A stretch of DNA of 40,000 nucleotides from Clostridiaceae bacterium (GTDB taxonomy: Bacteria > Bacillota > Clostridia > Lachnospirales > Lachnospiraceae), in NCBI GenBank assembly GCA_910575585.1, contig CAJTGF010000048.1, forward strand, positions 1-40,000. Direction: 5' to 3'. Under the pieces are notes generated by a model. The model was given only the letters and a program-made list of their open reading frames with translations. It made no database searches and was not told the origin of the DNA. This document shows positions 14,137 through 38,416 of this stretch, one piece after another (position 1 is the first letter of the stretch; the number at the start of each line of letters is the position of its first letter). A program made the translations under genes and the position numbers.

Positions 14137-14224
14137 GATTTTTATTCCTCCTCGTTTTTTAAGTATGGAACATGGGGAGGAATTACAGTGTCTTTTTGGG
14201 GCACAAAAGATCCAGAGCAAAAAA

Positions 14225-19578: not shown

Positions 19579-19587
19579 ATTTGAAAG

Positions 19588-19672
19588 CGTTTGCGAAAGG
19601 ATTCGAACCTTCGGTGCGTTACCGCACACCACCTTAGCAGGGTGGCACCATAAGCCTCTCGGACACGCAAAC
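19588..19672 (-). tRNA. tRNA-Ser (GCU)
   Basis: Acceptor stem GTTTGCG/CGCAAAC with discriminator G, anticodon stem CCACC/GGTGG with loop CTGCTAA (anticodon GCT), long variable arm TGTGCGGTAACGCACC and T-loop TTCGAAT. The CCA end is not encoded. It is the last tRNA of the leftward array. Confidence 0.9.
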
Positions 19673-19678
19673 GAAAAG

Positions 19679-19761
19679 TGGATGGGGCAGGAATCGAACC
19701 TGCGGTGTTTCTTTGTGACGGATTTACAGTCCGCTGCCCTCGCCTCTAAGCATACCCATCC
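19679..19761 (-). tRNA. tRNA-Tyr (GUA)
   Basis: Acceptor GGATGGG/CCCATCC with discriminator A, anticodon loop CTGTAAA (GTA) between CGGA and TCCG arms, a long variable arm as expected for bacterial tRNA-Tyr, and T-arm GCAGG TTCGATT CCTGC. No encoded CCA. Confidence 0.9.
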
Positions 19762-19762
19762 A

Positions 19763-19836
19763 TGGGGTGACCAGGGGGAATCGAACCCCCGTAAGCAGAG
19801 CCACAATCTGCCGGACTGCCATTGTCCTATAGCCAC
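19763..19836 (-). tRNA. tRNA-His (GUG), base -1 is T instead of G
   Basis: Acceptor GTGGCTA pairs with TGGTCAC. The anticodon loop TTGTGGC (GTG) lies between GCAGA and TCTGC, and the T-arm is GGGGG TTCGATT CCCCC. Position 73 is C and the CCA end is encoded at 19765-19763, the only one in the array. The base before G1 (19837) is T on the tRNA strand, whereas tRNA-His normally carries an encoded G-1 opposite C73. Confidence 0.85.
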
Positions 19837-19838
19837 AA

Positions 19839-19911
19839 TAGCTCCTGTGGGACTCGAACCCATCATCTCCGGCTTGAGAGGCCGGTGTCCTGACCTTTAG
19901 ACTAAGGAGCC
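19839..19911 (-). tRNA. tRNA-Glu (CUC)
   Basis: Acceptor GGCTCCT/AGGAGCT (one G-U pair), discriminator A, anticodon arm CCGGC CTCTCAA GCCGG (CTC), T-arm with GGTTCGAGTCC. No encoded CCA. It is very similar to the tRNA-Glu (UUC) next to it, which suggests tandem duplication. Confidence 0.9.
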
Positions 19912-19915
19912 ATGA

Positions 19916-19988
19916 TGATCCCCATGGGACTCGAACCCAATACCTCCGGCTTGAAAGGCCGGTGTCCTGACCTTTAGACCAGGGGACC
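19916..19988 (-). tRNA. tRNA-Glu (UUC)
   Basis: Acceptor GGTCCCC/GGGGATC, discriminator A, anticodon arm CCGGC CTTTCAA GCCGG (TTC), T-arm with GGTTCGAGTCC. No encoded CCA. Confidence 0.9.
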
Positions 19989-20046
19989 TTACTGCAGGCA
20001 TTTCCAGCCTGCTATTATTTTATTGTTTTTCTTTCCTATCTTTCAT

Positions 20047-20301
20047 TCATGCACCAATCTGCATCCGAGCCACTGTGTTGATCTCCAGGATATCATCCAG
20101 CCGTACCTGCAGGACTGCTGCCAGGATTACCAGATTATCGATGGTTGGCAAAGCTACGCCCTGCTGCCACTTGTATATAGCCTGCGGTGTAGCAAAACCA
20201 AAGATATCCTGTAGATCCTTTACGGACAGTCCTGCCTGCTTCCGAAGCCTTCTTATGTTCTGTCCAGTTCCCGCCATATCTATGGTTGGCAGATTCACCA
20301 T
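20047..20301 (-). CDS. XRE-type HTH regulator inside the tRNA array
   Basis: An 84-residue protein. AGGAGG eight bases before the ATG at 20301 decides this start; an upstream in-frame GTG would lie inside the ribosome site. The body is one HTH_3/XRE domain: NIRRLRKQAGLSVKDLQDIF with the recognition-helix part TPQAIYKWQQG, then PTIDNLVILAAVLQVRLDDIL. It is a DNA-binding regulator with no partner domain. It lies between tRNA-Lys upstream and tRNA-Glu (UUC) downstream on the same strand, so it may be transcribed with the tRNAs. Confidence 0.85.
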   Translation of the reverse strand: MVNLPTIDMAGTGQNIRRLRKQAGLSVKDLQDIFGFATPQAIYKWQQGVALPTIDNLVILAAVLQVRLDDILEINTVARMQIGA

Positions 20302-20343
20302 GATCCTCACCTCCTGTTATCGAAATTCAATACCAGGCGGCAA

Positions 20344-20416
20344 TGCTCCATATGGGACTCGGACCCATGCCCCCCCGATTAAAAATCGGGTGCTCTCCCA
20401 TCTGTACTAATGGAGC
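20344..20416 (-). tRNA. tRNA-Lys (UUU)
   Basis: Acceptor GCTCCAT/ATGGAGC, discriminator A, anticodon arm CCCGA TTTTTAA TCGGG (TTT), T-arm ATGGG TCCGAGT CCCAT. No encoded CCA. It is the first tRNA of the leftward array and is separated from the others by the XRE gene. Confidence 0.9.
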
Positions 20417-20417
20417 A

Positions 20418-21934: not shown

Positions 21935-22009
21935 TGATAGTATGGCTCATATAATATTTACTCTTTTTCTGCGGATACCTTTTTTATAGGTGTTCCCGGA
22001 GAACACCCC
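21935..22009 (-). promoter_or_regulatory. Conserved promoter-like block with parS/operator-like palindrome, copy 1
   Basis: TGTTCCCGGAGAACA at 21991-22005, with flanking GG and CCCC, is followed on the minus strand by TATCCGCA, an AT-rich stretch and GCCATACTAT. The same order occurs at 35875-35959 and 38341-38416. Downstream lies AAGGAG and a nine-codon stub from a GTG at 21906 (reads SKIQELIK after the start), which looks like the beginning of a lost gene. Confidence 0.55.
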
Positions 22010-26655: not shown

Positions 26656-29600
26656 TTACTTCCAATCGTGGAACCGAATACTCCCGATCTTCATTACATC
26701 CGGCCTTACCTTCAGTACCGGCAGCACGATTTCACACTCGTTGCCGATCAGATCCACTTTGTCCGGGGCACAGAATAGCATCTGCAGATGGTGCTCCTTC
26801 ATGAAATCCAGCATCAGCTTTACATTTCCCGGATCCATTTTTGCGAACGGTTCGTCAATAAACACCAGCTTCGTGCAGTTCTCCCTGGCGTCATAGGATA
26901 TGAGGAGGGCCGATAAGAGAATTAGCATATACGGAATCTGAACCTCCGCGCCGGACTCATAAGATGTCTGGCGGGACAACCGGGCGTTATGGAACACGGC
27001 ATTGTTGATGAGGATGTCATAGGCCATGTAATTCCGGTAATCGGAGATCTGTGCGATAGCATCCTCCGACCCGGATTCCACCAGCCCCCTCACAATCTGC
27101 TTAATATCCGCTTCCAGCTCTTCCGCATGGTCTTCTGGGTACACCATGGAGAGCTGCCCTTCCACCTGCCCAGAGGCGGTTTCCGACACGTACCGGGCAT
27201 AATCGATGATCTTCGCAAAATCACTCCCGTCATCCCGAAACACGACCTCGAACTGGTACTGCTCCTTAAAGTTCAGCTTCGCCAGCTTGTGGTTCATCCT
27301 CGTGATCTCCCGCTGCGCATCCACGCAAGCTGTGTAGATCCGCAGGACAAACTCCGTCCGGAAGTCTGACTCGTATTTCTCCTTCTGTGCCGCGAGCTTT
27401 TCCTTGACGCCCTGCAAGTCATCCATCCAGATACGGTCTTTCCTGGCGGCATATGCCGCGTGTTCCCTGGTCCCGACCGGAAGCGGTTCCCGCATGGACC
27501 ACCTGGCATTATAGCTGTACTGCCCCTGCTTCACTTCCTCTTCTGCGGCAGTCATGGCCTGCACAGCCTCTTCCCTGGCGGCTTTCGTCATGATGAGGCT
27601 GGAGGCCTTCTTCCCTGTTTCCACCTGCCTATCATATTCCTCCACGGCACATGCCGTCTCCGCAGGGAACAGCCCCCGGTAAGCATCCATGCGATCTTCC
27701 GCCTCTTCCAGCTGTTCCTGCTTCTCATCTGCTTTCCCGCCCCATACGGCGATCTTCGCCTCGATGGTCGAAACCTGGGAATACAGCTTCTGCTTTTCGT
27801 CCCGGACACGGGTAAGTTCTCCGTCCAGGCGCTCCCGTTCTGCCTCCATGCGGGTGAACTCCTGGTTGTCCTTCTGTGTCATCTTCATCCGCTCCAGGGC
27901 CTGCATGGATGCGCGGATCTGTGCAACAGTATCTGTGTACTCCGCATTGGCGCTGTAATGGATATCCGCTGGTATCCTTGCGTACCGCCTCGCATCATCC
28001 CTTGCCTGGGCCGCCGCCTTTTTTCCTTCCAGGAGTTTTTCCCTTTTCTCCATCGCAGCCTGCAGGGCTTTTTCCGCCCTCACCCGGTTCAGTTCCATGG
28101 CGTCCCTGCCGAGAAGAAAGCCACTGACCCGGTCAAACTGCAGGTAATAGGTGTCCATGGCAACGGAGACACAGCCATCCTTACTGATGGCGTTCTCCTC
28201 GCCCGGGACGTCCTCCGCAGGCACTGCCTTCATCCGCCCCAGGAGGAACGCAAAATATTTCCTTGCCATTGCCCCTTGGACATCCAGGAGCGCCGCCGCG
28301 GATCCCTCCTCCTCCCGGACAGCCCTTTTCATAAGGAGTTTCGTGTTGAACAGGTGTGCCCCTTTGTTCTTCGACTTCCGGAACACGGCGAACGCTGTAT
28401 CATAATACTCCGGCTCCACCAGGATAGTGTACCGCCTCTGACCCAGGAACGATTCGATGGCATTCCGCCACCTCTCATCCTTGAGGCCTGAGACGTACTC
28501 GCAGGCGAATTTTGCTTCCCCTGGGATCCCTTGTTTCTTTAACTCCGCATTGATCTCGTTTTTAAGTGCCCGGTATGCCCCCGGGATCTGGCTGAAGCTG
28601 TTCTGCTTCCTGTCGCAGTCATTTATGACACTGGAAGCGTCCGCAGCTTCTTTTGTTGCTGCCTCGATCCCGGACGATAGCCCCGCACATTCCGCCGCCA
28701 TATGGTCAGCAAGAGCTTCCAGCGCTTCCTTAAGGCTTTCCACGGCCTGTTCCTTCTCTATGCTGCTGTACTGTTTCAAGCCCAGGGAAGCCAGGATGTC
28801 CTGGGCTTTCACTTTCACGCCATGATCCACCAGCAGTGCGAGCGCTTCACTCACGGAAGCCTGGAACTCTTCCAGCTGTTTTTTCTTATCCAGGAGGACC
28901 GCTGCTTTTGTCTGCAGGTCTTCTTGGTGCTCCGTTTCCATGCGGATGGGTTCCATGCAGTCCATCGTGTCGAGGCTTAAGTTCGCCTGCCGGATCCGGC
29001 GTTCCAACTCCCTTTCTTCTTCCCCTTTTCTCTTCATGTCTGTTTTGATGTCCCCGATCTGTTGGCGGGCTGCGGACTGTTTTCTTGAAAGTTCCGTGAT
29101 CTCCCCATCCGTCTCGCAGTAGTCCCGGTACGCCCGCAGGATGTCGTCCCTCTGGACCCTGGCCGCCAGATCCTCGTGGCGCCTGCAGGCTGCCGCTACC
29201 GTTTCCAGGTCGGCGATCTCCTCACCGATACGGGAAAGCTCCTGGTTCAGCACCCCGATCTTCTCCATAGACTCAATGAGTGGCCCGAACCGCACTTCTC
29301 TTGGCTCCAGGACGCTCTCCCGGATGAACTGTTCGATCCGGGATTTTGGGTTATAGGTCAGAATACCGTGGATCTTCTTTAAGAATACCTGGGTCTGCTG
29401 CTTCGTGAGGTTCATGCCGGTCTTCTTCATGAAGCGCTCGATGCCTTCCTCGTTCGCCATGAACCGCGCCTGGTATTCCTTCCTTAGCATCTCCCTGGTC
29501 TTTGGCTTTGTGACGCCGTCCTCCGTATAGGTATGTTCCACAGAGGCCAGGCTTCGTTTTTCCATGACATAGCGCCAGGTCTTCGTGCTGTTCTTACTGT

Positions 29601-29982
29601 CCGTTTCGATGAGCGTTCCCAGGAGAAATTCTTCCCCGGTCAGCTCATCCAAGTACTCCAGGACGATATGGGTCGTCACGCTGCGCACTTTCTCCACGGG
29701 GCGCATGAACGTGTTGGATGTCGCGTCCATGAAGCCCCTCGTATAGGTCGGCAGCGTGCGCTTACCAGGTGTGTCCGTGGATTTGTTGAACACAGTATCC
29801 CCAAACGCCCCGTACCGGATGGCATCCAGGATGACAGACTTTCCGCTCCCATTCCGTCCCATGATCAGCGTGAAATGCCCCACAGGGAATGTATTGTTAT
29901 TAAACGCGTACCAATTGACCAGCCGCACATTTTTTAATAAGATCATCGAAATGTAACAGGAAGCCCTCCTGGATGTTTCCAT
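26656..29982 (-). CDS. JetC/MksB-like SMC ATPase
   Basis: A 1108-residue protein with an SMC layout. It has an N-terminal Walker A (GRNGSGKS, residues 42-49), a long coiled coil, a central hinge-like domain around residues 470-620, a second coiled coil, then a signature-like SGAEVQIPY near 1010 and Walker B (KLVFIDEPF, D1043/E1044). These are features of MukB/MksB/JetC ATPases, the DNA-extruding part of Wadjet and MksBEF condensins. JetB- and JetA-like genes lie upstream on the same strand. No JetD nuclease gene is seen. The METS start has no ribosome site; the later ATG at 29946 (MILLKNVRL) matches the family start and may be the true one. Confidence 0.85.
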   Translation of the reverse strand: METSRRASCYISMILLKNVRLVNWYAFNNNTFPVGHFTLIMGRNGSGKSVILDAIRYGAFGDTVFNKSTDTPGKRTLPTYTRGFMDATSNTFMRPVEKVRSVTTHIVLEYLDELTGEEFLLGTLIETDSKNSTKTWRYVMEKRSLASVEHTYTEDGVTKPKTREMLRKEYQARFMANEEGIERFMKKTGMNLTKQQTQVFLKKIHGILTYNPKSRIEQFIRESVLEPREVRFGPLIESMEKIGVLNQELSRIGEEIADLETVAAACRRHEDLAARVQRDDILRAYRDYCETDGEITELSRKQSAARQQIGDIKTDMKRKGEEERELERRIRQANLSLDTMDCMEPIRMETEHQEDLQTKAAVLLDKKKQLEEFQASVSEALALLVDHGVKVKAQDILASLGLKQYSSIEKEQAVESLKEALEALADHMAAECAGLSSGIEAATKEAADASSVINDCDRKQNSFSQIPGAYRALKNEINAELKKQGIPGEAKFACEYVSGLKDERWRNAIESFLGQRRYTILVEPEYYDTAFAVFRKSKNKGAHLFNTKLLMKRAVREEEGSAAALLDVQGAMARKYFAFLLGRMKAVPAEDVPGEENAISKDGCVSVAMDTYYLQFDRVSGFLLGRDAMELNRVRAEKALQAAMEKREKLLEGKKAAAQARDDARRYARIPADIHYSANAEYTDTVAQIRASMQALERMKMTQKDNQEFTRMEAERERLDGELTRVRDEKQKLYSQVSTIEAKIAVWGGKADEKQEQLEEAEDRMDAYRGLFPAETACAVEEYDRQVETGKKASSLIMTKAAREEAVQAMTAAEEEVKQGQYSYNARWSMREPLPVGTREHAAYAARKDRIWMDDLQGVKEKLAAQKEKYESDFRTEFVLRIYTACVDAQREITRMNHKLAKLNFKEQYQFEVVFRDDGSDFAKIIDYARYVSETASGQVEGQLSMVYPEDHAEELEADIKQIVRGLVESGSEDAIAQISDYRNYMAYDILINNAVFHNARLSRQTSYESGAEVQIPYMLILLSALLISYDARENCTKLVFIDEPFAKMDPGNVKLMLDFMKEHHLQMLFCAPDKVDLIGNECEIVLPVLKVRPDVMKIGSIRFHDWK

Positions 29983-30152
29983 CCAGGTAAGGGATTATGC
30001 GGTAAAAGCGCGATAACACGACCGGTCTCATAAAGGGACATACCGCATCCTCCTGTATCCTCCTTTCTGTTGTCTGCAAACTTATTCTGTATCCTAGTTA
30101 TGGGTAGGGTTTGATCCTGGATGACGGCTCTTTTTCCGCTCGGACATTTCCC

Positions 30153-30371
30153 TCAGGCTGTTTTGCAACGATGCCGGCACCGTCTGTTGTTATTGGCCGC
30201 CTTGTTGTTGGAATACAAGGATGTGACCCATTTCTTGAGGTTCCCCGTAGTTTCCTGATGCTTGACGCCCTTGTTATATGCCGCTTCGGCAGCGCATTGG
30301 AGAGCCTTCTTACTTAACCCTACGCACACTTTCAGGCACCACTCTGCATGTTTGGTTATGGTAACCATCAT
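30153..30371 (-). CDS. Small protein between the JetB- and JetC-like genes
   Basis: A 72-residue protein. GGAGG seven bases before ATG at 30371 sets the start. It reads ...TITKHAEWCLKVCVGLSKKA, then KGVKHQETTGNLKKWVTSLY, with a basic Cys-rich end (RRCRHRCK). I know similar small proteins with a longer C-terminus in mobile elements. In another frame the following bases stay open for about 25 more codons, so the end here may be shifted. Function is unknown. It lies 15 bases after the JetB-like gene, inside the condensin operon. Confidence 0.6.
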   Translation of the reverse strand: MMVTITKHAEWCLKVCVGLSKKALQCAAEAAYNKGVKHQETTGNLKKWVTSLYSNNKAANNNRRCRHRCKTA

Positions 30372-30386
30372 CTTCCCACCTCCCAA

Positions 30387-31046
30387 TTATCTGTCTTCCT
30401 CGTCGGGGCCGTCTTCTTCATCTTCCGTAGCATTCGCGTCCTGCTCTCCCTGGGCCCCTATGGCGGACCCGGACAGATACCCGTCCGCAACCTCCTTGAA
30501 CTGGGGCAGATCCCATCCGAACTGCAGGGACGGGTAGAGCCGGATCTTCATGTCCTCGCCCCGGTCGTCTTCGCTGTACTGGATGAACATGTATTTTTTG
30601 AACAACCGCAGGGCGGATTTGAGTTCTGCCCCTCCTACTTCGATCCCTGCAGCCTGGATACGGTCAACGAGGCTGCCCATCTCCAGGTATGTGCCGCCTT
30701 CCCCGCCCAGGGTCTCTAGGTATGCCTGCCAGAGTACCAGGAGCAGATGGTACTGTATCTGGGTGAACTGGACGATGTTGGACCGCCGGATCCCCTCCGT
30801 ATCTTCGTCCTGTGCGCTTATGGTGAGCATAGCGACCCCTGCCTTCTCCTCGATGACTAGGTCAAAACCAATCACCTGCAGGTACCGGGAGAGTTCTTCC
30901 CGGATGGATTCCCTGGCAAGAAAACGGTACAGCTTCTCTTCCTTTTCCTTTAAGATGAAGGTAGAGTCGAGCAGGTGCCGCACTGTCTTTTTAAACATTG
31001 CCGCATCCTGGTCCGGCACGGATAATTCAAGATGGATCCCTCTCAT
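30387..31046 (-). CDS. JetB/MksE-like (DUF4194-like) condensin subunit
   Basis: A 219-residue protein. AAAGGAGA six bases before the ATG at 31046 sets the start. The upstream codons in this frame come from the palindrome at 31088 and are not protein. The body fits the MukE/JetB winged-helix type: an N-terminal helical part with FILKEKEEKLYRFLARESIR, a strand-rich middle (FDLVIEEKAGVAML), FTQIQYHLLLVLWQAYLETL near residue 110, and an acidic tail (NATEDEEDGPDEEDR). It would bridge the kleisin-like JetA and the SMC ATPase. The gene is part of the leftward jetABC-like operon. Confidence 0.8.
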   Translation of the reverse strand: MRGIHLELSVPDQDAAMFKKTVRHLLDSTFILKEKEEKLYRFLARESIREELSRYLQVIGFDLVIEEKAGVAMLTISAQDEDTEGIRRSNIVQFTQIQYHLLLVLWQAYLETLGGEGGTYLEMGSLVDRIQAAGIEVGGAELKSALRLFKKYMFIQYSEDDRGEDMKIRLYPSLQFGWDLPQFKEVADGYLSGSAIGAQGEQDANATEDEEDGPDEEDR

Positions 31047-31087
31047 TGTTTTTCTCCTTTTGATTTCTGATTTTTTGTAATTTTTTA

Positions 31088-31108
31088 GGGTGTTACCGGG
31101 GAACACCC
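31088..31108. promoter_or_regulatory. parS/operator-like palindrome, copy 2
   Basis: Core TGTTACCGGGGAACA flanked by GGG and CCC. It lies between the zinc-motif gene and the JetB-like gene, with no T-run on the transcribed side, so it is not a terminator. Confidence 0.55.
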
Positions 31109-31133
31109 CTGGATTGGCCGTACACTGGAAGGT

Positions 31134-31421
31134 CTATGTATCCGCACCAGTATCTTCCGGCTCGAAGCAGTCTTTTGTTTTGACCATCCTGCTGCACCTT
31201 CTACATATGGAGCCATAATTCCCGCAAAACCTCTCCCCCACATGCCCGCACCCCTCGCACGGGGTCCCTTTTGTCTTGAGCCTGTCCAGGATTCTGCTGA
31301 TCTGCCTATATCCCATCCCGTAATCTTCGGCAAGATCCATGATGTCGCTGTCCGTCCGTATCTCCCCATTTTCATATTTTTTCCACACAACAGCTTCTAA
31401 TCCTATGTTCTTTGCATTCAT
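31134..31421 (-). CDS. Small HTH plus zinc-motif protein
   Basis: A 95-residue protein. AAAGGAGG nine bases before the ATG at 31421 sets the start. The N-terminal half looks like a helix-turn-helix (DIMDLAEDYGMGYRQISRIL), and the C-terminal half has CxxC pairs (CEGCG near residue 55, C then CRRC near 66-74) that would form a zinc knuckle. It is a probable DNA-binding protein. It lies inside the condensin operon between the frameshifted gene and the JetB-like gene. No named family is recognised. Confidence 0.65.
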   Translation of the reverse strand: MNAKNIGLEAVVWKKYENGEIRTDSDIMDLAEDYGMGYRQISRILDRLKTKGTPCEGCGHVGERFCGNYGSICRRCSRMVKTKDCFEPEDTGADT

Positions 31422-31444
31422 GCCGGCAAGCCTCCTTTACTTTT

Positions 31445-31839
31445 TTACCCCCAGTATTGATCATTGCCATCCCAGTCTTCGTCCTTGTCCTGGTAATCCC
31501 ACATATCCTCGCTGTTGGCTTCTGTCTCCAGTTCCAGATGTGCGTCCAGGTAAACGAGGACTGCTTCCAGCTTCTTGTCGTAAGCATCGTCGTCATCAAT
31601 GCCCAGGCCGCCGTGAGTGTGCTGGTGACTCTGCTGTCGCACTTTGCCGCCAAGTATCTGGCTGCCGGGTTGACCGTTTCCCTTCCATACCCAATCCCGA
31701 GATGGTCCCCATCGTTCCAATTGCGGCATCCGATGTGGGAGATTGCTCTTATGATCTCCCCCGCTACCATGTCTGCCTTGCCACTGTCCGGCACCAGCTT
31801 GTCAAAAAGTGTGTTAATCCTCTTTTCGGTCTCGTTCAT
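31445..31839 (-). pseudogene. Frameshifted unknown gene in the condensin operon
   Basis: From the ATG at 31839 (AGAGGATG upstream) the frame reads MNETEKRINTLFDKLVPDSG, then HIGCRNWNDGDHLGIGYG and NPAARYLAAKCDS. Near 31600 the protein-like reading moves to another frame (DDDDAYDKKLEAVLVYLDAH, ETEANSEDMWDYQDKDED) and ends at 31445. The two halves make sense together as one acidic protein of about 130 residues. A one-base insertion or deletion near 31600 would explain it. Function is unknown. Its position suggests a former accessory subunit. Confidence 0.6.
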
Positions 31840-31896
31840 CCCTACATCCTCTTTCAGGCTTTCTTTTGGCCCATAATCTCTGTCCCTTAATTTTTT

Positions 31897-31917
31897 GGGT
31901 GTTCCCCGATGACACCC
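31897..31917. promoter_or_regulatory. parS/operator-like palindrome, copy 3 (degenerate)
   Basis: Core TGTTCCCCGATGACA with GGG and CCC flanks. One arm is imperfect. It lies between the JetA-like gene and the frameshifted gene. Confidence 0.45.
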
Positions 31918-31934
31918 CCTTTGAGAGTGTCACT

Positions 31935-33362
31935 TTATGCTTTCTTCTTTTTTGCTACAAGTACGAAGTCGCTCATCTCCACGTCCCCGTGGTCTGTTAC
32001 TGCCTCCCCGAAATCGGCCTGGTACGGAAAATCCTCTGTAGTGGAGAAAATGACGGCGGAAGCGACCAGCAGGGCATCCTCTTTCGTGATGTCCGTCTCT
32101 TCCTTAACAGAAAACGTACCACCATCCCCTATCTTTTGTCTGATGTGCCGCATTGCCGCATCGATTCCGTACTTTTCCGAGGACGAACTGTATAGGGCCT
32201 GGGTCATGCCGGCAAGTTCTTCCTCCCCTACTTGGATATCCACGATCCCCCCCTGATCCTTCCTCTCTTTCTCTGCAGGTTTCCTGCGTTCAAAGGATTT
32301 CGGCCCGGCTAACTTAAAAGACATGACGCGCATGGAACCAGCCAAGGCGGATAAAACCCTGCCCCGTTCTTCCCCGTCCATCCCTTTTAGCGCCTCCAGA
32401 ACGCGCCCCAAATACCCCCTTGTATCCATGCCGCCGCTGCGGGCCATGGAGATCCTTGCAGCGTAAAGGTTATAGTAGGAAGCGATCTTCTCGTCAATGA
32501 CAGACATCTGCTCGTCATAACCGTGGTTTAAAAAATATTCCAGTTCACTAAACTGTGCTTCCACGGACGCTTCGGCCTGGGTACGGGGGACATCTTTCAC
32601 AAGGGCGTACTCCGATATGATCCTTTGGTACAACTTGGAAACGGAAAGCCTGGCCAGAAGGACGTTAATCTTCGCAATCACCCCCGGCACTGTGCCGTTC
32701 TTCTTCATAAAGAAATAGTCCGTGAAAAAACGGTTCAGGAGTTCATCCTTCACCATGTAAGAACCAAGCCTGTTGGCACTATCCTGTTTGAGGATCCCGT
32801 CCATCACGCCCCGGATCCCGTCTTTCAAAATGAAAAGTTCCTCCTTCAAGTCCGCTTCGTGATCAGTCAGGGGCTCCAAGATGCTAGTATAGGGTCTGGC
32901 CTGGCGCCCGCCTCCCAGTTCCACTGCTGAATACAGGATCTCGTACATGGAAAAAATGTGGTTCGTTGCCGACCCTCCCGCACCGGCGTTTAAGATGCGC
33001 TCAATGAAGCTTACGGCCTTCCGGCACCGGGCGGTAAGGACGGTGATATCCTCGCCGCCCCGCCCGATCTCCCGTTTCCCGGCCCAGCCGCATTCCCTAA
33101 ACCTTGCGAGGACAGCCCCCGCATTCTGTGCGGGCATGGCGTCATGGCCGATCCTGTCATTTTCCCCTTCCGCGTCTTCGTCTTCCAGTTCATAGCGGAT
33201 CTGCCGCATATGGGACGCGATGATCTCCCTGGCATCCCTCTCGTAGAGTACGGGCATCTCCTTGGACTTCTCCACCAGCTTGGCCGCACATTCAAAGTAC
33301 AGCCGGGCGTTCTTGGACGACAGCAGGCGGAAAAAGTCACTGTCCTGTTTTGTGAACGCCAT
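31935..33362 (-). CDS. JetA/MksF-like kleisin subunit
   Basis: A 475-residue protein. AAGGAGG six bases before the ATG at 33362 sets the start. It begins FTKQDSDFFRLLSSKNARLY and continues as an all-helical protein with long heptad-like stretches (MRQIRYELEDEDAEGENDRI, VIAKINVLLARLSVSKLYQR, LEYFLNHGYDEQMSVIDEKI), ending in a small C-terminal domain. This fits the JetA/MukF-type kleisins of Wadjet and Mks systems, which link the SMC heads. It overlaps the preceding small gene by 26 bases, so translation is coupled. The order A, then B, then C matches Wadjet operons, although two small genes are inserted here. Confidence 0.8.
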   Translation of the reverse strand: MAFTKQDSDFFRLLSSKNARLYFECAAKLVEKSKEMPVLYERDAREIIASHMRQIRYELEDEDAEGENDRIGHDAMPAQNAGAVLARFRECGWAGKREIGRGGEDITVLTARCRKAVSFIERILNAGAGGSATNHIFSMYEILYSAVELGGGRQARPYTSILEPLTDHEADLKEELFILKDGIRGVMDGILKQDSANRLGSYMVKDELLNRFFTDYFFMKKNGTVPGVIAKINVLLARLSVSKLYQRIISEYALVKDVPRTQAEASVEAQFSELEYFLNHGYDEQMSVIDEKIASYYNLYAARISMARSGGMDTRGYLGRVLEALKGMDGEERGRVLSALAGSMRVMSFKLAGPKSFERRKPAEKERKDQGGIVDIQVGEEELAGMTQALYSSSSEKYGIDAAMRHIRQKIGDGGTFSVKEETDITKEDALLVASAVIFSTTEDFPYQADFGEAVTDHGDVEMSDFVLVAKKKKA

Positions 33363-33585
33363 CTGATGCCTCCTTGCTGCCTACCTGCTCCTCAATCCAT
33401 GCCTGCTGTGTAGTGACCGCTACATCGGCCATGCCGTCAAGTTCCTCTTCGACCATCTCCTGGATCATGCCGGAAAGATCCCATGTAACGGATTTCTGCA
33501 GTTCCGCAAACGGGAGACCCCCCGGCTTATCTGCATCTATATGGAAATCGATCTCGATCAGCCCTGTGTATTTCCCTATGATCAT
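33337..33585 (-). CDS. Small acidic protein, coupled to the JetA-like gene
   Basis: An 82-residue protein from an ATG at 33585 with AGAGGGACAGG upstream. The first part is beta-like (IIGKYTGLIEIDFHID), the second helical and acidic (MIQEMVEEELDGMADVAV). It overlaps the start of the JetA-like gene by 26 bases. I cannot name a family. Position between ParB and JetA makes it a candidate linker or regulator of the two systems, which is inference only. Confidence 0.6.
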   Translation of the reverse strand: MIIGKYTGLIEIDFHIDADKPGGLPFAELQKSVTWDLSGMIQEMVEEELDGMADVAVTTQQAWIEEQVGSKEASDGVHKTGQ

Positions 33586-33654
33586 GCCTGTCCCTCTTTT
33601 CTTTCGGTTTTATGTGCAAATGCGCAAACAGAAACCCTGCCCACTGCGATGCCC

Positions 33655-34812
33655 TTACTCCTCTGATCCTTCCGTTTCTTCTATACTGTGATCCACGGCC
33701 TCCCCCGGCTGCTGGATCCTGGAAATCTCCGAGTCGATCAGCTCTTTCAGCTGCTGGAGCTTACCAAGAACATCTTCCCTGTCCTGTTCCTTATACTGCT
33801 TGTCAGCACGCAGGAACTCCTCCATCTTCCCGTAGTACTGCTTGAACTTCTTTGCTGCCGTTTTTGATGTATAGGAAGCAGGGAACGGCTTTGCCGGTTT
33901 TGTTGCCTGGACAAGGGGTGTCACCTCCTCTGCGTATCTCTCGCTCCCGTCCTGCGTATCCGTATCTCCGCTTTCTTCCAGCTCCGCAGGGTTTGGAATT
34001 CCGGCACCTTCCGTGCCCGCAGTATTGTCCGTACCCCTGGATTCGCAGATGGACCGTACCGCATCTTCCGCCGTGATCAGCTCCCCTTCATGGGCTTTAA
34101 TGTAATCCACCAGTTCCTGGACCTCGTCCCTTGCCCCGGACATATTGAAGTCACGCATGAGCTGCAGGGCATCCAGCACGATATCCTGGTATCCGTCCGA
34201 CAGCACGGACATGGAGGAACCCTGGGCAAGCTGGAGCCTCCCATTCGCCACCGCTTCCTGTGCCCGGCTGTTTAGTTTCAGTAGGGATTCGTATTTATAG
34301 ATATTGGAGGGACTTGTGCCGAATTCCTTCGCCAGTTCCTCCCGTGTCTTTTCCCCTTCATAAGTCCCGTTGGCCCGCTCCATCTGGATGGTCTCCCGCA
34401 GATAACTGATCTGGCGAGCCGTATAGATCGCATTGTCACGCTGCACCGCATTACGGCCATAGATGTTTGCCCCCAAAAGCTCCCTGCGGCGCTCCGTCTC
34501 GGACTCCGGGTACGGGTATACGAAAGCTTTGATCTGGATGTTCCCAAGCAATGTGTTAGCCCGGTTCCTGCGGGCACCGGAATAGATCAGGAATGTCCCG
34601 TCCTTCATGTCCCATACCTCGATGGCGCCCTTAAAGCCAACGCGTTTCATACCTTCCGCCAGGCGGTCGATCCCTTCCATCCCGAACAGGTATTCGTTAT
34701 CCGGGTGCTCGACCAAGCATGCGGAATCCAGCATTCGGGTATCCTCCATGGTATACTGCTTATTCGCTATCTTTTTTAAGGTAGTGTTCCTGCCACTATG
34801 GATGTCTCTCAT
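33655..34812 (-). CDS. ParB-family partition protein
   Basis: A 385-residue protein from an ATG at 34812 preceded by AGAGG. The N-terminal ParB/Srx fold carries GARRNR at residues 79-84, the GxRR-type nucleotide-binding motif, and RNAVQRDNA near 120-128, as in ParB CTPases. An HTH follows (TREELAKEFGTSPSNIYKYE, about 156-175). The C-terminal third is acidic, then Lys/Gln rich, and would hold the dimer part. It binds parS-like DNA and partners with the ParA encoded just upstream. Six palindromes with TGTT...AACA cores in the window are candidate sites. Confidence 0.85.
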   Translation of the reverse strand: MRDIHSGRNTTLKKIANKQYTMEDTRMLDSACLVEHPDNEYLFGMEGIDRLAEGMKRVGFKGAIEVWDMKDGTFLIYSGARRNRANTLLGNIQIKAFVYPYPESETERRRELLGANIYGRNAVQRDNAIYTARQISYLRETIQMERANGTYEGEKTREELAKEFGTSPSNIYKYESLLKLNSRAQEAVANGRLQLAQGSSMSVLSDGYQDIVLDALQLMRDFNMSGARDEVQELVDYIKAHEGELITAEDAVRSICESRGTDNTAGTEGAGIPNPAELEESGDTDTQDGSERYAEEVTPLVQATKPAKPFPASYTSKTAAKKFKQYYGKMEEFLRADKQYKEQDREDVLGKLQQLKELIDSEISRIQQPGEAVDHSIEETEGSEE

Positions 34813-34883
34813 GATATTTTTTCCTCTTTCTTTCTATAATTTATGGACGATGTGCTATGTTTGGGTTTGATGGTCCCTACTGT

Positions 34884-35834
34884 TTACTTCATCAGGCGCT
34901 CGCTTAAGTCCTCGCCTGCCCCGTCAGAAAGGTTCGGAAGATGTTCTCCCTCTTTTAAGGCACCGCACCGGTGGAGCACTTCCTCCGTGACCGCAATATA
35001 ATCCTGCGTCACCCCGGCGCTCCTCTTCAGCCAGCATAACGGGCACCCGATGTGGGCGGCAAGCTTTGCGTTGCTGTTAGAACGGATCGGCGTGTCAATG
35101 AACACGCTGCCAAGCTGTTCCCGCACGTCCTGGTACATACTTCGGTCATATTTCTGCAGGGGCTGGATCATGGTAAAGAACACGCCGATGATATCCAGAT
35201 CCGGGTTCAGCCCCATGTTCCGGATGCTGTCCACGGTATCCATCAGTTCCCCATAACCGTTCATGCTGTAGCTGTCAACCGTTGCCGGTACCAGCACATG
35301 GTCTGACGCAGCCAACACGGCCACAGACAGTTCCCCCAGATGGGGCGGGAGGTCAAATAAGATGTAGTCATAGGCATAGGCGTGTTTCCTGGTCCGCCGG
35401 ATCAGACCAATGGCATCCCGGATCGTATACAAGCTGTCCTCATCATCCATGTCTTCTACCCGCAGATCCTGTAGCTTGCTGTTTGACGGGATCACATCGA
35501 TCCCCCTCCACTTTGCAGCATATCCGTCACGGATGCATATCTTCGCTTTGATGATCGCGTCATTGATCCGGGATGGGACTTCGATGAGGTCCTTTAAAGT
35601 CATGACTTCATCAAGCATTCCTCCGACAGTCCCATGCTTTTCATCATAGTCCGCCATGTTCTCCATCAGCAGGGAGGACGAAGCATTTGCTTGGGAATCC
35701 ACGTCGATGACCAATACCTTGGCGCCGGATTTTGCGAGGATCCCTGCCATGTTAAATACAGTCGTTGTTTTTCCCACTCCGCCTTTCTGGTTGAAAACGG
35801 CGATCTTGATCGGTTGTTTTCTTTTCGTTTGCAT
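34884..35834 (-). CDS. ParA-family partition ATPase
   Basis: A 316-residue protein. GGAAGG eight bases before the ATG at 35834 sets the start; the longer upstream frame runs through promoter and palindrome DNA. Deviant Walker A KGGVGKT at residues 17-23, the A' motif with D44 and D46 (VIDVDSQAN), and YDYILFDLPP (Walker B) near residue 140 are all present. It moves or positions DNA together with ParB. The gene is second in a leftward train after the 676-residue unknown protein, and a copy of the promoter-like block with two palindromes lies upstream. Confidence 0.9.
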   Translation of the reverse strand: MQTKRKQPIKIAVFNQKGGVGKTTTVFNMAGILAKSGAKVLVIDVDSQANASSSLLMENMADYDEKHGTVGGMLDEVMTLKDLIEVPSRINDAIIKAKICIRDGYAAKWRGIDVIPSNSKLQDLRVEDMDDEDSLYTIRDAIGLIRRTRKHAYAYDYILFDLPPHLGELSVAVLAASDHVLVPATVDSYSMNGYGELMDTVDSIRNMGLNPDLDIIGVFFTMIQPLQKYDRSMYQDVREQLGSVFIDTPIRSNSNAKLAAHIGCPLCWLKRSAGVTQDYIAVTEEVLHRCGALKEGEHLPNLSDGAGEDLSERLMK

Positions 35835-35874
35835 AAATTTTTCCTTCCTTCTTTTTGGCTTTATCAGTATTACG

Positions 35875-35959
35875 GTAATAGTATGGCTTAAGAAATATTT
35901 TTTTGTTTTTGCGGATAAGTGTTTTTGGACATTTTTTTGGGTGTTACCCGGGAACGCCC
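35875..35959 (-). promoter_or_regulatory. Conserved promoter-like block with palindrome, copy 4, upstream of parA
   Basis: Palindrome core TGTTACCCGGGAACG at 35942-35956. On the minus strand it is followed by TTATCCGC, an AT-rich stretch with AAATATTT, and AAGCCATACTAT about 40 bases before the parA start codon. The layout is the same as at 38341-38416 and 21935-22009. Confidence 0.6.
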
Positions 35960-36111
35960 CTGCAAGCCTCTTGGAAACACAATGCGACAGATCTTGGAAG
36001 ATAAATTGCGTGTCCGCAGAAAAACACAAATGCTGGGATAAAGATATAGTGCTGGAATATGTGGCACTGGATGTGCTGAAATATGCTGGATAGTCAGAGA
36101 TACTGAACATC

Positions 36112-36132
36112 GGGTGTTACCGGGGAACACCC
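36112..36132. promoter_or_regulatory. parS/operator-like palindrome, copy 5
   Basis: Core TGTTACCGGGGAACA with GGG and CCC flanks, identical over 21 bases to the copy at 31088-31108. It lies in the 440-base gap between the 676-residue gene and parA, which otherwise holds the block at 35875-35959 and a terminator but no accepted gene. Confidence 0.6.
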
Positions 36133-36145
36133 TCCCTATTTGCAA

Positions 36146-36179
36146 GGACAAAAGAAAAGCCCCAAAAGGAACTTTTCTT
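36146..36179 (-). terminator. Probable terminator of the 676-residue gene
   Basis: On the minus strand AAGAAAAG pairs with CTTTTCTT around a 12-base loop and is followed by TTG. It lies about 100 bases after the stop codon at 36275. The T-run is broken by C, so strength is uncertain. Confidence 0.45.
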
Positions 36180-36274
36180 AAGCAGTCAGACAAGACTGTT
36201 CTCAGACATACCAGCCTAATCCGCAGCTTTCCTCGCTGTATTCGAGCCATGCCTTGGCGGTTTCCACGAAAGTA

Positions 36275-38305
36275 TCATTCCTGTTTCTGTTTTCCTGTGT
36301 ATTTCTTATACGTTCGCTTCGTCATGCAGATATTGGCATCCCCCAATGGTGGCAGATAGACGCTGTGTATTTTCTCGCCCTCCTCATCGCAGTAGACATA
36401 TTCACTCCTTATATCTGCCGGGAGGGCATTTTTATATTCCTCATAGAACCAGCTGATAGCATCTGACAGTTTTAAGAGATCGGGCAATTCCTTTTCCGGA
36501 ATGTTCAGCATCTGTGCATATTCCGTTGCCTTCTTTGGGCGGATCTTCCATACTACTGGTGCTTTCCCAGACGGGATATCGCCTGTCCAAAGAATCCTTG
36601 GCGTGGTATTTCGCCTGATATGCGGGCTTTCGATACAGTCCTCTGGAGCAGTACGGATAATGATCGGGGACGTTTTCATTGACCAGCTGTTTTTCCTACG
36701 CATGGCTGGCATCCCGTCTTTATCTGTTACCGGCGTTCCATTTACAACTATGGATGTAAATGACGAGTATTTGCCTTCCGCTGCTTCTTTGATGATCCGG
36801 CCCTTATCTGCGGCAATCCGGTCGAGGATCATACCCCTTACTTTCCATTTCCCCTCCAGGAAATCCGCAATCTTTCCAGCCAGTACCCTGCTGTATGCCT
36901 TTTTCAGATTCTTTCCGATCATATCTTCATAATCTTCCGGTGTACCGCATTTCGAGGGAAGTATAGGCGCATCCAGGATATCTTCCCTACGGATCTGGAA
37001 GTAATGGCAGAGTTCCCTCATGTATGGGTCATCAAACATTTCTTCTGGACTCCGGAGTGCGTAAGTGTACTGCGGTACGGCCGGCAGATTCGTAAATACC
37101 GGGACGATCGCTCCTGTTTCCTTCCCGCAATGGCCTGAGGTGACGGCTGTGGCTTCTTCCGGCAACACCCATTCGTCTGCAGCTGGTTCCTCTTTTGTAC
37201 GGAAGAATTTTCCGATTGTTTCTTCAATAAATACCGGGAACCAGATCTTTTGTTGATCATCCATCAGTTCAGAAAGCAGATATCCCATTCGTGGGACTGC
37301 CAGGAAGGTGGTTTCAGCCGGTACTGCCGGCGGTTCCTTATAAAAAATCTCGTAAGGCGCATACCCGGCGCGACGCCCATAATAGTATTTTGATTTTGGG
37401 TCGTCGTAACGGCCGTAGTAATCCGTCTGGTACGGCATCTCCATCAGCCATATGGTTTCCCCTGTTTTTACGCACAGGTACACGTAGCGGGAATAGTCGC
37501 ACACCTGATCCATATATTCTTCTGTACTGATATGATCGCGGCGCATGATGTTTTCCTGTCTTTCTTCCACTCGTCCGTAATACCACTGATGGAAATAGTC
37601 CCCGACCTGTCGGTTTGTCTTCTCCACTGCACCGAACACAATCACGGATTCTTTCCCGCATTTGGTAACTTCGTCCACCAGTTCTTTTTCAGAACTGTAT
37701 TTACAGACTGCACGCCCGATCTCCGGCTGCCTAGCAGAGCGTACCCCTGCGCGTACCTTATGGATCTTTGGCGGATAATGATGGTTCTTTCCCTGGTACA
37801 GAGTGAATGCATCCAGGAGGGGATCCATGATCGCCGTCAGGTCAGCGTAATCCGTTTCCCGGATTGAAAAACCGAGTTTCCCCAAAAGCTCCCGGTATTT
37901 TTCTGACTTTTCCCTCCATATCGCCTTGTACGGATTATCCTCAAAGATCTGCTTCAGCCTCTGGACTGCCTGGATCTGCGAACCGTCGCCCTCTGCAACA
38001 TCCTCCAGCCGCACCAGAAGAAGTGGGGATGCTTGTCGGAACGTCTGCTCCAGAATGCTCATGGTCAAAAATTCTGTTTTTTCGCCGCCTTTTGCTGCCC
38101 GTTCCATCAGGTCCTTGCATTCCCAGTAGATATCCCGGATCGTTTTTCTTTGCCCGTTCACTTCCCGTTCCAGGCATGTCCCGGAACACTGGTAGGAATC
38201 ATTCAGTATCCCGTACAGCAATTCCGAGGCCTCCATGATCTCCGGCCCTCCGGTGACGCAACCTTTTTCCAGACAGTCTTCTTTTGTTTTTGCCCCTATC
38301 AACAT
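36275..38305 (-). CDS. Unknown 676-residue protein at the head of the partition/condensin train
   Basis: AAAGGAG six bases before the ATG at 38305 sets the start. The protein is soluble, with many Tyr and charged residues (YYGRYDDPKSKYYYGRR near 300) and scattered cysteines. Near the C-terminus is a segment of the type RILWTGDIPSGKAPVVWKIR. I recognise no domain, no Walker motif and no HTH. It is not JetD, as I see no Toprim-like acidic pattern. The strongest copy of the promoter-like block lies upstream. Its place before parA suggests a role in replication or maintenance of the element, which is inference only. Confidence 0.65.
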   Translation of the reverse strand: MLIGAKTKEDCLEKGCVTGGPEIMEASELLYGILNDSYQCSGTCLEREVNGQRKTIRDIYWECKDLMERAAKGGEKTEFLTMSILEQTFRQASPLLLVRLEDVAEGDGSQIQAVQRLKQIFEDNPYKAIWREKSEKYRELLGKLGFSIRETDYADLTAIMDPLLDAFTLYQGKNHHYPPKIHKVRAGVRSARQPEIGRAVCKYSSEKELVDEVTKCGKESVIVFGAVEKTNRQVGDYFHQWYYGRVEERQENIMRRDHISTEEYMDQVCDYSRYVYLCVKTGETIWLMEMPYQTDYYGRYDDPKSKYYYGRRAGYAPYEIFYKEPPAVPAETTFLAVPRMGYLLSELMDDQQKIWFPVFIEETIGKFFRTKEEPAADEWVLPEEATAVTSGHCGKETGAIVPVFTNLPAVPQYTYALRSPEEMFDDPYMRELCHYFQIRREDILDAPILPSKCGTPEDYEDMIGKNLKKAYSRVLAGKIADFLEGKWKVRGMILDRIAADKGRIIKEAAEGKYSSFTSIVVNGTPVTDKDGMPAMRRKNSWSMKTSPIIIRTAPEDCIESPHIRRNTTPRILWTGDIPSGKAPVVWKIRPKKATEYAQMLNIPEKELPDLLKLSDAISWFYEEYKNALPADIRSEYVYCDEEGEKIHSVYLPPLGDANICMTKRTYKKYTGKQKQE

Positions 38306-38340: not shown

Positions 38341-38416
38341 TTATAGTATGGCTCAGGAATATTTTTCTTGTTTTTTGCGGATAACTGTTTTTTGAGGGTG
38401 TTCCCGGGGAACACCC
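38341..38416 (-). promoter_or_regulatory. Conserved promoter-like block with palindrome, copy 6
   Basis: Palindrome core TGTTCCCGGGGAACA at 38399-38413, the most symmetric copy. On the minus strand it is followed by TTATCCGCAAAAAAC, AAAAATATT and GAGCCATACTAT, then the ribosome site of the gene at 38305. TACTAT may be the -10; no good -35 is seen, so an activator may be needed. Confidence 0.6.

What the first reader, a model, noticed from the sequence alone, without database searches (positions are those of the whole stretch)
26656..38305. Partition locus joined to a JetABC/MksBEF-like condensin, with no JetD nuclease
One leftward train encodes an unknown 676-residue protein, ParA, ParB, a small acidic protein, a JetA-like kleisin, a JetB-like subunit and a JetC-like SMC ATPase with good Walker A and B motifs. 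Wadjet systems normally carry a fourth gene, jetD, whose nuclease cuts plasmid DNA. None is visible within the operon or beside it. ParB and SMC cooperate on bacterial chromosomes. Here a mobile replicon may carry its own SMC loader and motor for segregation or compaction, instead of a defence system. The overlap of the small 33337 gene with jetA ties the ParAB and Jet parts together.
Basis: partly seen in the sequence, partly recalled or inferred. Interest (0 to 1): 0.85.

Follow-up and report, generated by a model that had tools for sequence, protein, structure and literature searches.

The report
Partition genes joined to nuclease-less Wadjet motor
What is probably a large mobile DNA element carries its own DNA-sorting genes joined to a DNA-looping motor related to a plasmid-destroying defence system but without the cutting enzyme, which suggests that the motor looks after the element's own DNA.

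Summary
One leftward train (26656-38305) encodes an orphan protein (U676), ParA, ParB, an 82-aa protein, JetA, JetB and JetC. Profiles place JetA/B/C in Wadjet type I. No jetD lies in the unit; the one JetD match in the draft genome is on another contig, beside its own distant JetABC. In 37 of 40 distinct related loci JetD follows jetC. A second genome repeats the order from U676 to JetB (57-88% identity, small protein 34-38%); its jetC (81%) is on another contig, also without jetD. JetA/B/C dN/dS is 0.08-0.10: not a decaying Wadjet.

New: a parS-like palindrome occurs six times in the window. Its strict form is in 1 of 397 family genomes, the own one. The same par cassette without Jet sits in a chromosomally integrated element with a conjugation coupling protein and its own DnaE. 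Other contigs of the own genome match that element; the window itself matches it almost only in the par genes.

Best reading: a nuclease-less Wadjet motor kept beside ParABS as the element's own condensin. A ParB-Jet link is inferred, not shown.

The parts
36275..38305 (-). U676, orphan 676-aa protein, first gene of the par cassette
   Evidence: ORF; relatives found in L034/L092 (58%) and L096 (57%); no family or PDB match; 1 of 397 family genomes, its own
34884..35831 (-). ParA, deviant Walker A KGGVGKTT
   Evidence: AAA_31 1e-39; PHROG ParA 1.6e-51; 85-86% identical in L092 and L096
33655..34812 (-). ParB with GARRNRAN (ParB CTPase box GERRxRA, recalled) and HTH
   Evidence: HTH_ParB 9.8e-5, just over cut-off; TIGR00180 3.2e-8 and ParB_N 0.17 below cut-off; PDB relatives Noc 7ng0/7nfu, KorB 8qa8, ParB 4umk
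33337..33585 (-). 82-aa protein between par and jet genes; overlaps jetA by 26 nt
   Evidence: 81-aa homologue in the same place in L092
31935..33362 (-). JetA, kleisin-like subunit, Wadjet type I
   Evidence: PF18982 3.6e-60; PDLC00448 2.1e-139; dN/dS 0.077
31445..31729 (-). 94-aa acidic ORF (overlaps 31372-31839 in another frame); no counterpart in L092
   Evidence: no convincing family match
31134..31421 (-). 95-aa ORF, weak HTH matches below cut-off; no counterpart in L092
30387..31046 (-). JetB, KITE-like subunit
   Evidence: DUF4194 2.4e-23, PDLC00478 4.8e-73; dN/dS 0.097
30153..30386 (-). 77-aa ORF between jetB and jetC, homologous to a 115-aa ORF before jetC in L091
26656..29946 (-). 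JetC, SMC-like ATPase; Walker A GRNGSGKS, signature SGAEVQ, Walker B LVFIDEP kept
   Evidence: PDLC00516 E=0; alignment of 12; dN/dS 0.094
38397..38415 (.). parS-like palindrome, 0 mismatches to consensus, 92 nt before U676
36113..36131 (.). parS-like palindrome in the U676-parA gap
   Evidence: two sites also lie in this gap in L092 and L096
35940..35958 (.). parS-like palindrome (2 mismatches) upstream of parA
31898..31916 (.). degenerate parS-like palindrome (3 mismatches) just after jetA
31089..31107 (.). parS-like palindrome (1 mismatch) upstream of jetB
21989..22007 (.). parS-like palindrome (1 mismatch) 4.6 kb beyond jetC, outside the reported span

Best explanation
A large mobile element (probably integrative or conjugative, host probably Lachnospiraceae) carries a ParABS system: ParA, a ParB of the Noc/KorB/ParB kind, and several palindromic parS-like sites. 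Downstream of parB it carries a Wadjet type I JetABC motor without a JetD nuclease. Likely working (inferred): ParB clamps gather on the palindromes and ParA moves them apart; JetABC, encoded in the same train, binds and extrudes the element's DNA and so compacts or resolves it for segregation. Without JetD the motor should not cut. Shown by sequence: gene families, absence of JetD from the unit, conserved order in a second genome, purifying selection, ATPase motifs, element-specific palindromes, the same par cassette in an integrated element with a coupling protein. Inferred: parS function, motor activity, the ParB-Jet link, the segregation role, and that the window belongs to the same kind of element.
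For: Families. JetD absent from the unit and matched only on C35 of the own genome; JetD after jetC in 37 of 40 distinct related loci. Same order U676-ParA-ParB-small-JetA-JetB in L034/L092; jetC on L091, no jetD in the 2 kb after it. dN/dS JetA 0.077, JetB 0.097, JetC 0.094. JetC motifs kept. Palindrome: 5 hits (4 sites) in the window against 0.06 expected; within 1 mismatch five sites on C48, one on C33 and one likely chance hit in the own genome; strict form in 1 of 397 family genomes. Two sites in the U676-parA gap in all three par cassettes seen. No terminator-like match on the - strand between parB and jetA, in a scan that is at chance level overall. Sister element with coupling protein and DnaE; homologues in the own genome at 82-90% and 82%; 23 of 25 mechanical ORFs of own contig C59 match it.
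Against: The par cassette also exists without jetABC (C4 of G421), so Par does not need Jet. Only two JetABC-bearing copies are known. Of 35 mechanical ORFs in the window only the three par genes and one choline-binding-like ORF match C4, so membership of that element kind is inferred. The two palindromes beside jet genes have no counterpart in L092 or L091. Three window palindromes precede a promoter-like module and may be operators. Terminator-like - strand matches lie in the U676-parA gap (36179-36152) and before jetC (29971-29957), so one transcript is not assured. No structure or interaction was obtained. In C. glutamicum MksB showed no specific loading sites and no role in chromosome folding (passages of PMC7083940). 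jetC of the second genome is on another contig.
Confidence: 0.55

Rival explanations
1. JetABC is still a defence system against rival plasmids and uses JetD from the host, or another nuclease, in trans.
For: Both host genomes have a JetD match elsewhere. One JetD-less locus, L054, is followed by a 330-aa ORF that by eye looks like a restriction-type nuclease, though no library names it.
Against: The host JetDs are best matched by other subfamilies (own genome PDLC00524; G421 JetD3), while L035, one of the nearest relatives, has a PDLC00526-type JetD. I saw no ORF shared between the two copies next to jetABC other than the 77/115-aa ORF.
Confidence: 0.15
2. JetABC is a decoy or dominant-negative factor that protects the element from the host's Wadjet.
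For: A mobile element would gain by blocking Wadjet; the own host carries a complete JetABCD on C35.
Against: The host JetC is only 22-24% identical, so mixed complexes are unlikely. The complete, constrained ATPase speaks for an active motor.
Confidence: 0.12
3. The palindromes are operators of a KorB-like global repressor (ParB or another protein), and jetABC is cargo that happens to lie beside par.
For: The sites at 38397, 35940 and 21989 precede a repeated promoter-like module. KorB is among the PDB relatives of ParB. A par cassette without jet exists.
Against: The module also occurs several times without the palindrome. Paired sites in the U676-parA gap are kept in three cassettes. The order par-small-jet is conserved at about 75-80% identity in JetA, JetB and ParB.
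Confidence: 0.15
4. A decaying Wadjet that lost jetD by chance.
For: jetD is missing; small ORFs lie within the operon.
Against: dN/dS 0.08-0.10 over JetA, JetB and JetC between two JetD-less copies, with dS above 1; motifs intact; long shared branch in the tree.
Confidence: 0.03

Closest known systems
Wadjet type I (JetABCD; MksBEFG)
   Same: JetA, JetB and JetC belong to these families; the nearest relatives (about 40% identity in JetA) are mostly JetABCD loci of Lachnospiraceae
   Different: no JetD nuclease; linked to ParAB, U676 and parS-like sites
SMC-ScpAB with chromosomal ParABS
   Same: a ParB with parS-like sites encoded together with an SMC-type motor
   Different: the motor is MukBEF/Jet-like; loading by ParB not shown; it would serve an element, not the chromosome
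MksBEF of Pseudomonas aeruginosa
   Same: a Mks/Jet complex assumed to act in chromosome organisation (passage of PMC7083940)
   Different: chromosomal; strain PA14 has an mksFEBG operon with the nuclease gene (passage of PMC10123090); no link to a par locus that I know of
KorB / ParB partition and regulation of large plasmids
   Same: ParB-family protein with several palindromes, some upstream of promoter-like modules
   Different: no SMC-type motor in those systems (recalled)

Membership tests
Wadjet type I | JetA, JetB and JetC of the type I families | tested here: met
   PADLOC and Pfam matches
Wadjet type I | JetD nuclease encoded in the same operon | tested here: not met
   JetD_C rings only on C35 of the own genome; none downstream of jetC in the window or L091
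Wadjet type I | restricts transformed plasmids | not testable with these tools
   needs plasmid clearance assays
ParABS partition system | ParA ATPase with deviant Walker A next to ParB | tested here: met
ParABS partition system | ParB with N-terminal ParB domain and HTH | tested here: met
   HTH_ParB just over its cut-off; PHROG and PDB relatives; ParB_N and TIGR00180 below their cut-offs
ParABS partition system | repeated palindromes clustered at the par locus | tested here: met
ParABS partition system | palindromes bound by ParB | not testable with these tools
   only co-occurrence with this ParB seen
SMC motor complex | intact Walker A, signature and Walker B motifs | tested here: met
   alignment of 12 JetC
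SMC loaded by ParB | physical or functional ParB-SMC link | not testable with these tools
   only gene linkage and site placement seen
Integrative or conjugative element | coupling protein and integrase | tested here: inconclusive
   coupling protein homologue in the own genome on C27/C59 and in G421 C4; integrase in C4; none seen in the window, which matches C4 almost only in the par genes

The most novel reading that the evidence does not exclude
A mobile genetic element has taken over the loop-extruding motor of an anti-plasmid defence system, dropped its nuclease, and tied it to its own ParABS, so that a weapon against mobile DNA has become the mobile DNA's private condensin, possibly loaded by ParB at the element's own centromere sites.
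Probability: 0.45. Interest if true: 0.85.

Novelty: new variant of a known kind. Interest (0 to 1): 0.68.

Why it matters
Complete Jet/Mks complexes are best known for acting against plasmids. A nuclease-free version kept under selection beside ParABS on a probable mobile element would show that the motor can switch sides, and would offer a compact natural system for asking whether ParB can recruit a MukBEF-like motor as it does SMC-ScpAB. The element-specific palindrome gives a ready, testable loading site.

Tried and rejected
Looked for the system in plasmids (72,556 records) and phages (50,697 records) by tblastn with JetA and U676: no match. Viral contigs with JetA, U676, ParA, ParB and JetC: patterns matched, no relative confirmed. 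The one genome-contig scan gave 28 loci; only L034 has the par genes upstream of jetA. JetA at E<=0.001 rang in 36 of 299 family genomes, the own one included; the others are at most 42% identical. Of those 35 others I fetched wider stretches for 15; the weaker 20 were not checked for JetD or par.

Intrinsic terminator as the reason for the palindrome: rejected. On the - strand five of the six sites are followed by an A run and none by a T run.

JetD-contact residues: of positions conserved in JetD-bearing relatives the JetD-less pair lost 7 of 38 in JetA, 4 of 33 in JetB and 15 of 134 in JetC; too weak and without a structural map, so not used.

Hypothesis that jetABC goes with autonomous replication: L092 has Rep3-like (weak), RepL-like and DnaB genes and an iteron-like array, none of them matched in the fetched pieces of the Jet-less C4, but the own genome has no homologue of that Rep. 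Dropped.

U676 structure: 19 calls of structure prediction (49, 55, 59, 62, 67, 70, 78, 81, 83, 88, 93, 98, 102, 104, 106, 108, 111, 112, 114) were answered 'machine busy', so there is no fold and no fold search.

Literature: nine searches listed, by title and start of abstract, nothing on a ParAB-linked or JetD-less Jet locus on a mobile element. Passages only were seen of PMC10586767, PMC10123090, PMC7083940, PMC6579920 and PMC12287153; other papers in listings only.

Full report
What is there. The window is contig C48 of a 6.13 Mb, 253-contig draft genome (96.9% complete, 4.1% contamination) and is held as exactly 40,000 bases. On the - strand from 38305 to 26656 lie U676, ParA, ParB, an 82-aa protein, JetA, two small ORFs, JetB, a 77-aa ORF and JetC. 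Profiles: JetA PF18982 3.6e-60 and PADLOC JetA1 2.1e-139; JetB DUF4194 2.4e-23 and PADLOC JetB1 4.8e-73; JetC PADLOC JetC1 at E=0; ParA AAA_31 1e-39; ParB HTH_ParB just over its cut-off, with TIGR00180 and ParB_N below theirs. A three-sequence ParB profile finds Noc, KorB and ParB in the PDB; a 12-sequence JetC profile finds JetC 8dk1 first; JetA finds nothing there. U676 matches nothing.

No JetD in the unit. The JetD_C profile rings once in the own genome, on contig C35, beside a separate JetABC whose JetC is 24% identical. To see how unusual this is I built profiles in a script and mapped the 27 relatives from genome contigs other than L034 (L035-L061) and stretches of 15 of the 35 other family genomes with a JetA match (L100-L114). 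JetD follows jetC in 26 of 27 and in 13 of 15. The exceptions are L054, L110 and L112; L112 is a jetA remnant without jetC. A further JetD-less JetABC lies in G421 beside a gene that reads as cysS (L094). In the fetched stretches none of these exceptions has par genes. In a FastTree of joined JetA, JetB and JetC (43 rows, root set by me at L094) the window and L034 form a pair (support 1.0, branch 0.83) next to a JetD-bearing clade (0.909), and JetD-less loci appear in more than one place. L055, a complete JetABCD, has a ParA-like gene 2.6 kb further on.

A second copy. L034 (CAJTGE010000065.1, Clostridiaceae bacterium, MGBC000167.65) has U676 (57%), ParA (88%), ParB (75%), the small protein (38% local, 34% overall), JetA (77%) and JetB (75%) in the same order. 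Its jetC (81%) is on a 6.5 kb contig of the same genome, with 2 kb after it and no jetD; that it follows jetB is inferred. Between the two copies dN/dS (Nei-Gojobori with Jukes-Cantor) is 0.077 for JetA, 0.097 JetB, 0.094 JetC, 0.058 ParA, 0.119 ParB and 0.110 U676, with dS from 1.2 to 2.9, near saturation. JetC keeps Walker A, signature and Walker B. So JetABC has been kept by selection without a nuclease gene beside it. The JetDs elsewhere in the two genomes are best matched by other subfamilies (PDLC00524; JetD3) than that of the relative L035 (PDLC00526), which speaks against borrowing in trans.

parS-like sites. A palindrome, GGTGTTCCCSGGGAACACC, occurs at 38397, 36113, 35940, 31898 (degenerate), 31089 and 21989, outside the named genes if they start at the positions given here. 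An exact pattern gave 5 hits in the window, two of them the two strands of one site, where shuffles gave 0.06. Within one mismatch of a looser form the own genome has five sites on C48, one on C33 and one likely chance hit on C71; G421 has 11 on C4, C65, C67 and C40, of which C4:60409 is poor; the reversed control gave 1 and 0. A strict form was found in 1 of 397 family genomes, the own one, at three sites on C48; G421 was not in that draw. Two sites lie in the U676-parA gap in all three par cassettes seen. This ties the site to this ParB by co-occurrence. Canonical parS, TGTTTCACGTGAAACA (recalled), is similar in form. Against a pure centromere role, three window sites precede a repeated promoter-like module, as a KorB-like regulator would have. 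The two sites beside jet genes flank the small-ORF stretch that L092 lacks, and L092 and L091 have no site there.

The element. In G421 a second U676-ParA-ParB cassette, without jet genes, lies in C4 (226,841 bp). C4 has chromosomal genes near both ends (FtsZ at 43 kb, ObgE at 215 kb). Between about 49 and 210 kb it carries a T4SS coupling protein, DnaE, a NAD-dependent ligase, RecJ and a phage-type integrase at 207 kb. By eye there is another integrase-like ORF at 209 kb, and a serine-recombinase-like end beside a sigma-factor fragment near 49 kb. That this is one element of roughly 160 kb is inferred. In the own genome the coupling protein is at 82-90% (C27, C59) and DnaE at 82% (C59). Mechanical ORFs matching C4: 23 of 25 on C59, 8 of 15 in the fetched part of C27, and 19 of 51 on C33, a transposase counted in. 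In the window only 4 of 35 match: the three par genes and a choline-binding-like ORF. So the own genome holds such an element, and the window probably belongs to it, on the strength of the par cassette and the palindromes; the rest of the window does not show it. C67 and C4 of G421 are 74-82% identical in stretches over 300 bp and the coupling protein has a second copy on C30 (91%), so G421 holds two related copies; that the JetABC-bearing C65 goes with the second is inferred. Whether the own copy is integrated or free is not known.

Reading. The best-supported account is a nuclease-less Wadjet type I motor kept beside ParABS on a large, probably mobile element, most likely for compaction or segregation of its own DNA (confidence 0.55). 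It may work like an SMC partner of a partition system. It is not filed as a Wadjet system, because the JetD feature was tested and not met. The link from ParB to Jet rests on gene order and site placement alone. In C. glutamicum MksB showed no specific loading sites and no role in chromosome folding but affected plasmids, while P. aeruginosa MksBEF is assumed to act on the chromosome (passages of PMC7083940). Nine searches of a library without most subscription papers or bioRxiv preprints listed no description of a ParAB-linked JetD-less Jet locus.

Noticed in passing
window 19587-20417 (-): Array of six tRNA genes (Ser, Tyr, His, two Glu, Lys) on the contig.
   Followed up: partly
window near 38383, 35917, 21977 (-); L092 near 5436, 8245, 12973, 14997, 18388, 18504: Repeated promoter-like module TATCCGCA followed about 20-25 nt later by AGCCATACT or close to it, with or without the palindrome; three chromosomal control stretches have 1, 2 and 1 TATCCGCA but not the second half.
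   Followed up: partly
G000 C13 (L127 3154-3250), C59 (L130 13744-13840): Group II intron domain matches beside codon about 426 of conjugation coupling protein genes; many coupling protein fragments in the own genome begin or end at that codon.
   Followed up: partly
L054 9977-17089: JetABC without JetD in a genome with no JetD_C match; 0.56 kb after jetC a 330-aa ORF that by eye resembles a restriction-type nuclease, with no Pfam or PADLOC match.
   Followed up: partly
L094 3394-8755: JetABC without JetD beside genes that read as chromosomal (cysS and others, by eye) in G421, distant from the window's.
   Followed up: partly
window 31089-31916: About 830 bp with two small ORFs between jetA and jetB, flanked by palindromes; L092 has jetA and jetB overlapping instead.
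   Followed up: partly
L092 9481-10998, L098 16825-18240: ORFs that look by eye like IscB-type proteins on the related elements; they match each other at 27%.
   Followed up: no
window 5710-14220 (-): 2836-aa protein with a SpaA-like domain near its end, probably a surface protein.
   Followed up: no
L055 14845-15672: ParA-like gene 2.6 kb after a complete JetABCD.
   Followed up: no
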